In this document: in pieces, positions 40,081 to 60,480 of the stretch
Position numbering within the stretch: the stretch's first letter is position 1
Layout: each line of letters begins with the position of its first letter
Assembly: GCA_947178475.1 (NCBI GenBank)
Contig: CAMWYM010000004.1
Coordinates: 1-64,000, forward strand
DNA length: 64,000 nucleotides
Origin: an uncultured Clostridium sp.
Lineage (GTDB): Bacteria; Bacillota; Clostridia; Lachnospirales; Lachnospiraceae
Direction of reading: 5' to 3'
Position numbers and translations under genes: made by a program
The notes under the pieces: model-generated
What the model was told of the DNA's origin: nothing
The model's database searches: none
The model's input: the letters and a program-made list of their open reading frames with translations, nothing else

Positions 40081-40665
40081 TTAATCCTTTACCGGTGCAA
40101 AGGACAGCTGTGCTTCCTCCATGGCCTGCTGCTTAAAGTCTTCAATCTTATCCGGTGTGATAATCGGCAGCTCATCGGTAGACTGTACACCAAAGCTTCT
40201 CAAAAAGTCATCGGTAGTCCCAAAAAGGATAGGTCGCCCTGCTGCTTCCAAACGTCCGACCTCCTGAATCAGATTATATTCCACTAATTTATTCACTGCA
40301 TGTACACAGGAAACACCTCGTATCGCTTCAATCTCCTGTCTGGTAATAGGCTGCTTGTATGCTACAATGGAGAGTGTTTCCAACAGCACATCGGTCAGTA
40401 TATGCTTCTTCGGAATATTGATTACTTTTACCAGGGTGTCATAATAGTCTGCCTTGGTACACATTTGAAATGCATCCTCCAGCTCAACAATCCTGACTCC
40501 GCGATTCACACCATCATATTTATCCATCATATTATGTATAATTTTTACCACTGTATCCACGTCTAATTCCAGTGCCTGGGCAATCCTCTCTCTTCCGACT
40601 GCCTCTCCCACCGAAAACAGTATCGCCTCGATTTTTCCTTCTATTACATTAATATCCTGTTCCAT
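40081..40665 (-). CDS. scpB: Segregation and condensation protein ScpB
   Basis: MEQDINVIEGKIEAILFSVGEAVGRERIAQALELD; the track start at 40776 reads through a repeat element; AGGAG lies just upstream of ATG at 40665. Confidence 0.94.
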   Translation of the reverse strand: MEQDINVIEGKIEAILFSVGEAVGRERIAQALELDVDTVVKIIHNMMDKYDGVNRGVRIVELEDAFQMCTKADYYDTLVKVINIPKKHILTDVLLETLSIVAYKQPITRQEIEAIRGVSCVHAVNKLVEYNLIQEVGRLEAAGRPILFGTTDDFLRSFGVQSTDELPIITPDKIEDFKQQAMEEAQLSFAPVKD

Positions 40666-40679
40666 ATTTACTCCTGTCA

Positions 40680-40795
40680 TTTGTAACCAATTTTGCTCTG
40701 CAAAATTGATTGCCTGCTTGCCCGCCATCACGGAGTGATTCTTAATGCGGGCAATTCCCGTCTCATAAATTTTCATAATCTACTTTACACTATCT
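40680..40795 (-). repeat. Structured intergenic repeat element, copy 1 (scpA/scpB junction)
   Basis: Contains CAATTTTGC-TCT-GCAAAATTG (40688-40708), TTGCCCGC...GCGGGCAA (40718-40754) and inner ATCAC-GGA-GTGAT; shares sequence with copies at 44670 and 57950. Confidence 0.85.
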
Positions 40796-44669: not shown

Positions 44670-44719
44670 TTTGTAACCAATTTTGCAAAGCAAAATTGAT
44701 TATCTGCTTTTCACTATCT
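44670..44719 (-). repeat. Structured intergenic repeat element, short copy 2 (upstream of tarI)
   Basis: CTCCTGTTATTTGTAACCAATTTTGC-AAA-GCAAAATTGATTATCTGCTTTTCACTATCT; shares both ends with copy 1. Confidence 0.85.
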
Positions 44720-57798: not shown

Positions 57799-57933
57799 CT
57801 AATGGCATCCTCTGCACTTTGAACAGTCACCACCACATTGTAATGATTTTCCACTCCTCTTATCCCGAATCATGCTCCGGATACTAAGCGCAACGATACC
57901 GGCTAAAACCACACCAACTATAACTGTCCCCAT
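57799..57933 (-). CDS. FeoB-associated Cys-rich small membrane protein
   Basis: MGTVIVGVVLAGIVALSIRSMIRDKRSGKSLQCGGDCSKCRGCH; RBS GGAGG; track start 58011 lies inside the repeat element. Confidence 0.85.
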   Translation of the reverse strand: MGTVIVGVVLAGIVALSIRSMIRDKRSGKSLQCGGDCSKCRGCH

Positions 57934-57949
57934 TTTTACACCTCCATCT

Positions 57950-58092
57950 TTTGTAACCAATTTTGCTCCGCAAACTTCGTTTGTTGCGATAGTCGCTAAA
58001 TGTGTGTGCAAGCACCCACGCTTAGCTCGTTATTCGCACAAATTGATTACCTATTCACGTGCCATTACGAAGTGATTTTCATGCACGTGATA
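57950..58092 (-). repeat. Structured intergenic repeat element, expanded copy 3 (feoB/small Cys protein junction)
   Basis: TTTGTAACCAATTTTGC...CAAATTGATTACC plus outer stem TCACGTGC (58055-58062)/GCACGTGA (58083-58090), same layout as copy 1. Confidence 0.8.
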
Positions 58093-58107
58093 CCTTAAAC
58101 AAGAATT

Positions 58108-60480
58108 TTATACTGACAATTTTTTCATATCCACATTCAACGTCTTACTTTCGCTATAAGGTCTAAAAAGCAGATAAATAAATGCGATTACCAGCAGGAA
58201 CGCAATTGCCGTTCCGATACCAAAGATACCCGCCGCAATAAAAGTACCAATCTGATAAATACACAGTCCCACAATATAGGCAAGTATAGTTTGATAACCG
58301 ATTGCAAACCAGAACCATTTTACATTATTCATCTCTCTCTTTATTGCACCCATCGCAGCAAAGCACGGGGCACACAAAAGATTAAATACAAGAAATGCAT
58401 AAGCGGCAACCGGTGTAATAGCCGCTGACAGCTCACTCCAAATCTCCGCACCATCTTCCGCAACCTCCGCATATCCAAACAACACACCAAAGGTGGCTAC
58501 AACATTTTCTTTTGCAATCAAGCCTGTCACCGTTGCCACTGCCATTTTCCAGTCACCAAAGCCCAAAGGTGCAAAGATTGGTGCGATCACATTGCCAATT
58601 GCAGCAAGTAAACTCTGGTCAAGCTCTTCTGCTTCCAGCATTACAAGACCCCCATCCCAGGTAAAGCCCTGCAAAAACCATAAGACAATAGTTGAAAGTA
58701 AGATAATTGTACCGGCCTTCTTAATAAAGGACCAGCCGCGTTCCCACATGCTCCTCAAAACATTTCCGACAGTCGGCATATGATAGGCTGGCAGCTCCAT
58801 GACAAAAGGAGCCGGATCTCCTGCAAACATACGGTTTTTCTTTAATATGATACCTGAACAGATTATTGCTGCAATCCCGATAAAATAAGCACTCCATGAA
58901 ACCCAGCCGGAATTATCAAAAAACGCACCGGCAATTAAGGCAATAATCGGCAGCTTTGCCCCACAGGGAACAAAAGTAGTTGTCATAATGGTCATCTTAC
59001 GGTCTCTGTCATTTTCAATGGTACGGGATGCCATTATTCCCGGAACACCACACCCACTGCCAATCAGCATTGGGATAAAAGATTTACCTGAAAGACCAAA
59101 CTTACGGAAGATACGGTCCATGATAAATGCCACTCTCGCCATATAACCACATGCCTCTAAAAATGCAAGAAAAATAAATAATACCAGCATCTGAGGCACA
59201 AAGCCGAGAACCGCACCTACGCCGGCCACAATACCGTCCAGAATCAGGCTCTTTAATCCGTCTGCACAGTTTAACGCATCAAGTCCCCTTTCCACCAATA
59301 CCGGTATACCTGGAACCCATACACCATAATCTGCTGTATCCGGTTCTCCCGCCTCAATAATCTGCTGTGCCTGTGTTACAACGCTATCCGAAATATTAAC
59401 GGTTTCAATCACATTATCCTCTTCATCTACAATCTCTGCAGTAACAGCTCCCTCCTCCCAGGCAGCTACAATCTGGTCTGCCCGGCTAAAGTCTGCCGCA
59501 TCCTCCTCATAAGCTGATGTACCGATTCCAAGTAAATGCCAGCCATCGCCAAAAACGCCATCATTGGCCCAGTCGGTTGCCCATCCACCAACCGTGGTAA
59601 CCGATATATAGTATACCAAAAACATCACCACTGCAAAAATCGGTAAAGCCAGCAAACGGTTTGTCACAATTTTATCAATTCGGTCAGACACCGTCAACTT
59701 ATTTTCTCCTGCCTTTTTTACACAGTCACCGATAATAGAAGAAATATATACATACCGTTCATTGGTAATAATGCTTTCTGTGTCATCGTCAAACTCCTTC
59801 TCCAGAGCTTTAATTTCTGCCGAAACATCAACCGATGCATTTAATTGCTCAGCAATCTTATCATCCCGCTCAAGCAGCTTAATGGCAAAGAAACGCTTCA
59901 GTTCTTCAGAAACATCCAGTTTTCTCTCCACGTTCTGGATAGCCTCTTCCACCTTGGAACTAAATACAGGAGTCTGTGTCACAGCCTGTGCCTTTGCTGC
60001 AAGCTCTACTGCCTTAGCCGCCGCCTTTTCAATGCCGGTTCCCTTAAGCGCAGAGATTTCCACAACCTCACAGCCAAGTGCCTTACCCAGTTTATCTATG
60101 TATACCTTATCACCGCTCTTTTCCAATAGGTCTGCCATATTAACTGCCATGATAACCGGAATACCCAGCTCCATAATCTGCGTAGATAAGTACAGATTTC
60201 TTTCGATATTGGTTCCGTCAACAATATTGATAATGGCATCCGGTCTTTCTGAAATCAGGTAATTACGGGCAACCACCTCCTCTAAGGTATACGGTGACAG
60301 GGAATAAATTCCCGGCAGATCCATAATGGTAACTTCCTTATTCCCTTTCCACTTTCCTTCCTTTTTCTCTACAGTTACTCCCGGCCAGTTCCCTACAAAC
60401 TGGTTAGAACCGGTGAGTGCGTTAAATAATGTTGTTTTTCCGCAGTTTGGATTACCTGCTAATGCTATTTTTACTGACAT
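58108..60480 (-). CDS. feoB: Ferrous iron transporter FeoB
   Basis: 790 aa; ALAGNPNCGKTTLFNALTGSNQFVGNWPGVTVEKKEG; Gate/Nucleoside-recognition domains; GCGVPGIMASRTIENDRDR. Confidence 0.98.
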   Translation of the reverse strand: MSVKIALAGNPNCGKTTLFNALTGSNQFVGNWPGVTVEKKEGKWKGNKEVTIMDLPGIYSLSPYTLEEVVARNYLISERPDAIINIVDGTNIERNLYLSTQIMELGIPVIMAVNMADLLEKSGDKVYIDKLGKALGCEVVEISALKGTGIEKAAAKAVELAAKAQAVTQTPVFSSKVEEAIQNVERKLDVSEELKRFFAIKLLERDDKIAEQLNASVDVSAEIKALEKEFDDDTESIITNERYVYISSIIGDCVKKAGENKLTVSDRIDKIVTNRLLALPIFAVVMFLVYYISVTTVGGWATDWANDGVFGDGWHLLGIGTSAYEEDAADFSRADQIVAAWEEGAVTAEIVDEEDNVIETVNISDSVVTQAQQIIEAGEPDTADYGVWVPGIPVLVERGLDALNCADGLKSLILDGIVAGVGAVLGFVPQMLVLFIFLAFLEACGYMARVAFIMDRIFRKFGLSGKSFIPMLIGSGCGVPGIMASRTIENDRDRKMTIMTTTFVPCGAKLPIIALIAGAFFDNSGWVSWSAYFIGIAAIICSGIILKKNRMFAGDPAPFVMELPAYHMPTVGNVLRSMWERGWSFIKKAGTIILLSTIVLWFLQGFTWDGGLVMLEAEELDQSLLAAIGNVIAPIFAPLGFGDWKMAVATVTGLIAKENVVATFGVLFGYAEVAEDGAEIWSELSAAITPVAAYAFLVFNLLCAPCFAAMGAIKREMNNVKWFWFAIGYQTILAYIVGLCIYQIGTFIAAGIFGIGTAIAFLLVIAFIYLLFRPYSESKTLNVDMKKLSV

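What the first reader, a model, noticed from the sequence alone, without database searches (positions are those of the whole stretch)
40718..40754. Compensatory covariation in the outer stem of the repeat element
Copy 1 has TTGCCCGC-N21-GCGGGCAA (40718-40725/40747-40754); copy 3 has TCACGTGC-N20-GCACGTGA (58055-58062/58083-58090). The arms differ at four positions yet both are perfectly complementary. The enclosed loop is conserved (CATCACGGAGTGATTCTTAAT vs CATTACGAAGTGATTTTCAT) and includes an inner mini-hairpin ATCAC-GGA-GTGAT. Conserved loop with co-varying stem is the signature of selected secondary structure (RNA, or hairpin DNA recognised by a transposase).
Basis: seen in the sequence. 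Interest (0 to 1): 0.7.

Follow-up and report, generated by a model that had tools for sequence, protein, structure and literature searches.

The report
Mobile hairpin repeat docked at ribosome-binding sites

Summary
The two window copies are TTGCCCGC/GCGGGCAA and TCACGTGC/GCACGTGA, and both stems are perfect. I collected copies from the host genome, congeners, Schaedlerella and other genera of the family. These show eleven fully complementary arm pairs, many one base-pair step apart, so the compensation is stepwise. In a tree-aware, R-scape-style null that I wrote, 7-9 of 18 proposed pairs covary (E<0.05 over the structure), and 9 of the 11 top-scoring column pairs are structural. Selected hairpin folding is therefore supported. 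A riboregulator of scpA-scpB is not. The repeats are patchily distributed and nearly identical at unrelated loci, and they form tandems, nest in one another and leave deletion derivatives. They behave as small non-autonomous mobile elements with two or three hairpins. Unexpectedly, 28 of 31 terminal copies in this genome run into a Shine-Dalgarno plus start codon within 10 nt, always in the sense orientation, even where long non-coding stretches lie upstream. A sister family docks instead at TGNTATAAT (-10-like) sites. Whether folded DNA or RNA is recognised is unsettled: wobble counts favour neither strand. No mobilising enzyme was found; a Y1/REP-type transposase is absent here and not associated. 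A new variant of a known kind.

The parts
40680..40792 (-). Copy 1 of the element (type A: H0 + H1 + H2), between scpA and scpB, sense strand = scpAB mRNA
   Evidence: 96-98% identical full-length copies elsewhere in the genome; boundaries from divergence of flanks among copies and from congeners lacking it
40718..40754 (-). Hairpin H1: outer stem TTGCCCGC/GCGGGCAA with inner mini-hairpin ATCAC-TCC-GTGAT in sense (the reported feature)
40713..40717 (-). Linker GCAGG, a GYAG tag directly 5' of hairpin H2
   Evidence: conserved as GYAG[G/T] in most of the family
40683..40713 (-). Hairpin H2: GCAATCAATTTTGC-AGA-GCAAAATTGGTTAC, conserved T.G pair, covarying outer and inner pairs
40766..40783 (-). 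Hairpin H0 of the 5' module (GTAGAT..ATTTAT); covarying forms GTAGAT..ATCTAC, GTAAAT..ATTTAC, GTATC..GATAC in relatives
   Evidence: read by eye; helix in the RNA fold; covariation not tested statistically
40670..40675 (-). Shine-Dalgarno AGGAGT of scpB (start ATG at 40663-40665), 7 nt after GGTTAC
   Evidence: the same SD and start are present in congeners without the element
44670..44702 (-). Copy 2: truncated copy keeping only H2, again abutting AGGAGG + start codon
57950..58098 (-). Copy 3 (type B element, H1 = TCACGTGC/GCACGTGA at 58055-58090) upstream of a 44-aa gene's SD
57975..58039 (-). 65-nt structured insert inside H2 of copy 3; the same insert sits at the same point in H2 of type-D elements

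Best explanation
The feature is hairpin H1 of a small non-autonomous mobile repeat (about 75-150 bp; H0-H1-GYAG-H2) that proliferates in some bacteria of this family and lodges immediately 5' of Shine-Dalgarno sequences in the sense orientation. SHOWN by sequence: hairpin covariation, dispersal to unrelated loci, nesting, tandems, deletion derivatives, and SD docking. INFERRED: the folded single strand of H1/H2, rather than its letters, is what the mobilising machinery recognises. Arms can therefore drift as long as both sides change together, and each new subfamily is spread from a perfectly paired master copy while individual copies decay afterwards. At the insertion site the hairpins fold within the mRNA and leave the downstream SD unpaired, so insertion just before an SD is tolerated. 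No locus-specific regulatory role for scpA-scpB is needed.
For: (1) Eleven perfectly paired arm versions, with single-pair steps linking several of them (TTGCCCGC and TCGCGCGC are two pairs apart; TCGCGCGC - TCACGCGC - TCACGTGC are single-pair steps), from own genus, Schaedlerella and other genera; tree-aware covariation test. (2) Mobility: 52 BLAST matches in the genome; CM matches in 4-5 of about 25 species of the genus, in Schaedlerella (47) and in scattered other genera, most genomes none; type B found inside the H1 loop of type A; tandem copies; deletion derivatives; congeners lack it at scpA-scpB. (3) SD docking: 28 of 31 terminal copies in the genome, SD 4-10 nt after GGTTAC; 52 of 79 ends in all genomes against 207 of 5,000 random positions. 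(4) Folded mRNA leaves UGACAGGAGUAAAUAUGG unpaired. (5) No Rfam family.
Against: No mobilising enzyme or autonomous partner identified. No convincing terminal inverted repeat or target duplication for types A/B. Distant copies were found with a covariance model that rewards pairing, so unpaired copies may be under-sampled, although BLAST and the arm-blind pattern gave the same picture. The covariation test is my own script, not R-scape. Strand preference is not resolved.
Confidence: 0.62

Rival explanations
1. Cis-acting riboregulator: a shared RNA leader that controls translation of a regulon by folding next to the SD (or binds a protein or ligand), the covariation being selection on mRNA structure at each locus.
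For: Fixed sense orientation and tight SD spacing; three-hairpin fold with free SD; stems diverge more slowly than unpaired sites among copies (A 0.017 v 0.077; D 0.024 v 0.044).
Against: Downstream genes look unrelated (for example a chromosome-segregation gene and ABC transporters); 96-98% identity at unrelated genes implies recent copying; absent from the same gene in congeners; truncated, tandem and nested copies sit at the same kind of place; no preference for G.U over A.C departures; no Rfam match.
Confidence: 0.17
2. Arms stay complementary without selection: quasi-palindrome correction (template switching within the hairpin during replication) copies one arm onto the other.
For: Would produce compensatory changes in any imperfect palindrome; several multi-pair differences fall on single branches (about 29 two-sided changes against about 29 one-sided breaking ones).
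Against: Predicts perfect homogenised arms, yet the T.G pair of H2 (38 of 44 cells) and the C.A at its second pair (17 of 44) persist uncorrected; copies with broken arms are common.
Confidence: 0.15
3. A REP-type element mobilised by a Y1 TnpA_REP (RAYT) transposase acting on the ssDNA hairpin with its GYAG tag.
For: GYAG directly 5' of an imperfect palindrome with a conserved mismatch resembles the GTAG tag and stem mismatch of E. coli REPs (PMC8266576); Y1 proteins occur in several element-bearing genomes.
Against: PF01797 is absent from this draft genome and from G070 (99% complete, 15 copies); 7 of 12 element-bearing against 6 of 14 element-free genomes have it; no element lies within the first 12 Y1 loci; GCAG, the commonest tag here, was barely cleaved by one studied TnpA_REP (PMC8266576).
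Confidence: 0.08
4. A start-codon-docking translational-coupling element like mycobacterial MIRUs: the element carries a short ORF (MKIYETGIARIKNHFVMAGKQ...) that delivers ribosomes to the gene behind it.
For: Same-sense docking at a translation start; in copy 1 the ORF is open into scpB.
Against: The ORF is not conserved: MKK-stop in most Schaedlerella copies, frame-shifted or stopped early in many others, and no fixed relation to the next start codon.
Confidence: 0.05

Closest known systems
REP/BIME palindromes and REPINs (TnpA_REP/RAYT)
   Same: Short dispersed extragenic palindromes, stem mismatch, tetranucleotide tag just 5' of a hairpin, tandem and mosaic arrays
   Different: Tag mostly GCAG; two or three different hairpins per unit; docks at SDs in one orientation; no associated Y1 gene found
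Pneumococcal BOX/RUP/SPRITE repeats
   Same: Modular small repeats in a Gram-positive host, insert into one another, judged parasitic (PMC3049150)
   Different: No SD docking or fixed sense orientation found in the passages read; BOX mobilisation has been tied to ISSpn2-like TIRs, while no TIR was recognised here
Mycobacterial interspersed repetitive units (MIRU)
   Same: Mobile repeats lodged at translation starts with little harm to the gene (PMC12548453)
   Different: MIRUs couple an internal ORF to the start codon; here the unit stops a few nt before the SD and its ORF is not conserved
MITEs / ERIC / Correia elements
   Same: Small non-autonomous, intergenic, hairpin-forming
   Different: No clear TIR; no TSD for types A/B; no parent IS found

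Membership tests
REP/BIME (TnpA_REP-mobilised) | Conserved GTAG-type tetranucleotide immediately 5' of a palindrome | tested here: inconclusive
   GYAG (mostly GCAG, also GTAG) directly 5' of H2 in most copies
REP/BIME (TnpA_REP-mobilised) | Cognate Y1 transposase in the genome | tested here: not met
   No PF01797 match in this draft or in G070; no association over 26 genomes; no element in 12 Y1 loci
MITE derived from a DDE insertion sequence | Terminal inverted repeats | tested here: not met
   Ends TAGTGTAAAG / ATTTGTAACC share only TGTAA
MITE derived from a DDE insertion sequence | Target-site duplication | tested here: not met
   None visible for types A/B at several loci; type D shows TG[A/T]TATAAT on both sides
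MITE derived from a DDE insertion sequence | Autonomous parent element with the same ends | tested here: inconclusive
   5' modules in the single-contig Schaedlerella chromosome are followed by H2 within about 110 bp or, in five cases, by none within 1.5 kb; four of these run straight to a start codon; draft contigs of the own genome break at repeats
MIRU-type translational coupling element | Conserved internal ORF overlapping the next start codon | tested here: not met
MIRU-type translational coupling element | Same-sense insertion at translation starts | tested here: met
   (at the SD rather than the start codon)
Known structured RNA family | Match to an Rfam model | tested here: not met
   (only a chance mir-19 match, 16.5 bits against a 50-bit cut-off)
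Pneumococcal BOX | boxA-boxB-boxC sequence and ISSpn2-like ends | not tested
   BOX sequences were not compared

The most novel reading that the evidence does not exclude
These are expression-signal-homing mobile elements: one subfamily (GGTTAC end) is targeted to Shine-Dalgarno sequences and a sister subfamily (GGTGAC end) to extended -10 boxes (TGNTATAAT, duplicated on insertion), using hairpins read by shape. The H2 end would determine which gene-expression signal is chosen.
Probability: 0.3. Interest if true: 0.68.

Novelty: new variant of a known kind. Interest (0 to 1): 0.46.

Why it matters
It gives a clean natural data set in which the shape, rather than the sequence, of a hairpin is conserved in a mobile repeat. 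It also shows a repeat family that inserts at one precise place relative to translation signals, which makes a targeting question testable. Practically, it warns that ORF callers may start scpB inside the repeat and that such repeats can look like new riboregulators.

Tried and rejected
Y1/RAYT transposase as the agent: no association. Search for an autonomous parent by its 5' module in Schaedlerella: only short units. Plasmid and phage carriage: no match. Rfam: none. Conserved leader peptide/uORF: not conserved. Strand inference from G.U against A.C departures: neutral; the AC counter double-counts A-C cells, hand-corrected to about 19 A.C against 8 G.U outside the two fixed columns. Integron-like cassette site: rejected because scpA-scpB order is the same in congeners without the element. 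An over-permissive regex was discarded in favour of model-hit parsing. The D-type structure string was shifted and was corrected. Papers on repeats of this bacterial family: none found.

Full report
OBSERVATION. The sequence is as reported. Read on the minus strand, which is the scpA-scpB mRNA sense, copy 1 is GATAGTGTAAAGTAGATTATGAAAATTTATGAGACGGGAATTGCCCGCATTAAGAATCACTCCGTGATGGCGGGCAAGCAGGCAATCAATTTTGCAGAGCAAAATTGGTTACAAATGACAGGAGTAAATATG. It has three hairpins: H0, H1 (the reported one) and H2. A GCAG tag precedes H2, and the SD and start of scpB follow at once. The ORF list starts scpB at 40776, inside the element. Congeners and the SD place the real start at 40663-40665.

FAMILY. BLAST with copy 1 finds 52 places in the 3.1-Mb draft genome; BLAST with copy 3 finds 49. 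Types: A (H1 arm TTGCCCGC), B (TCACGTGC), D (TTGCGC-TGAT-GCGCAA, H2 ending GGTGACATAT), and a 65-nt insert found inside H2 of A/B and of D. Type B lies inside the H1 loop of type A in several contigs and in congeners, and tandems occur. A covariance model from seven A/B copies finds the family in about 4-5 of roughly 25 species of the genus, in Schaedlerella arabinosiphila (47 matches), Petralouisia muris (3), and scattered other genera. Most genomes have none.

COVARIATION. Two copies alone put all changes on one branch. With more copies the fully complementary arms are TTGCCCGC, TCACGTGC, TCATGCGC, TCGAGCGC, TCGCGCGC, TCACGCGC, GCACCCGC, GCACCCGT, GCATCTGC and GCAGACGC, each with its own complement, plus one G.U variant. 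I wrote an R-scape-like test: G statistic with APC; null made by re-placing each branch's parsimony substitutions at random columns on a FastTree tree. With 42 copies the six best of about 1,225 column pairs are all proposed base pairs. With 47 copies nine of the best eleven are, and 7-9 of 18 proposed pairs have E<0.05 over the structure. Under the stricter all-pairs E-value only one or two pass 0.05. Type D adds three compensated pairs. Caveat: distant copies were gathered with a model that rewards pairing. Sequence-only retrieval agrees, and so does a pattern with the 3' arm left open. Of the eight places that pattern found, one is a chance coding match (Haloferula). Among the other seven, one A copy has a deletion in its 5' arm and one B copy has lost its 5' arm; the rest are fully paired.

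WHAT KEEPS THE ARMS PAIRED. Copies with broken arms are common. Departures from pairing do not favour G.U over A.C on the sense strand, so an mRNA-level constraint is not demonstrated. Stems still change more slowly than unpaired sites among copies, consistent with perfect masters being amplified.

DOCKING. Of 31 terminal ends in this genome, 28 have SD + start codon + ORF within 30 nt, with the SD 4-10 nt after GGTTAC. A 29th (L029) has an SD-like site missed by the rule. In all genomes 52 of 79 ends, including internal tandem/nested ends, satisfy it, against 207 of 5,000 random positions and 7 of 57 for type D. In 17 of the 31 a co-oriented gene ends within 60 nt of the element's other end. 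In others the nearest upstream coding end is about 75 to 800 nt away and the SD is still 5-10 nt off, so gap size alone does not explain it. Short deletion derivatives also abut the SD. Relatives lacking the element at scpA-scpB keep the same SD. Closest reading of the insertion...GGTGAAAAGATA | GTGTAAAG...GGTTACAAA | TGACAGGAG..., with no visible duplication (inference; no strain-level empty site was available).

TYPE D. Left flanks read TG[A/T]TATAATG and right flanks ATATG[A/T]TATA.., and the variable base agrees on both sides in most of 39 copies. This suggests insertion into extended -10-like sites with duplication.

AGENT. Not found. Y1 transposase (PF01797) has no association with the element. 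No parent element was seen, and there was no match on plasmids or phages.

KNOWN KINDS. It works like REP/BOX/MIRU-type small mobile repeats. It fails tested membership features of REP, MITE and MIRU (see table; BOX sequences were not compared), and no Rfam family fits. I file it as a new variant of a known kind. The covariation itself is what one expects of a hairpin-recognised repeat; the docking at SD and -10-like sites is the unusual part.

Noticed in passing
L206-L225 and others (type D); Type-D hairpin repeats are flanked on both sides by TG[A/T]TATAATG-like sequence with the variable base agreeing: apparent target duplication at extended -10-like sites.
   Followed up: partly
57975-58039 (copy 3); L070-L086: A 65-nt insert sits at the same point (after CAATTT) inside H2 of A/B- and D-type elements and covaries too: GTGGGTGC/GCACACAC against GTAGATAC/GTATATAC with a conserved G.A mismatch.
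   Followed up: partly
G000 contigs C9, C77, C145, C62, C25; L096; L187: Type-B elements nested inside the H1 loop of type-A elements; the composite has itself multiplied.
   Followed up: partly
L334, L340, L346, L348 (Schaedlerella): The 5' module GTGTAAAGTATCGTATGAAAA occurs without H1/H2, directly in front of a start codon.
   Followed up: no
40081-40776: Mechanical ORF call extends scpB upstream through the repeat (37 extra residues); the true start is very probably ATG at 40663-40665.
   Followed up: yes
57800-58110: Copy 3 precedes a 44-aa Cys-rich protein gene that looks like a FeoB-associated membrane protein, with a putative feoB upstream (assigned from memory, not searched).
   Followed up: no
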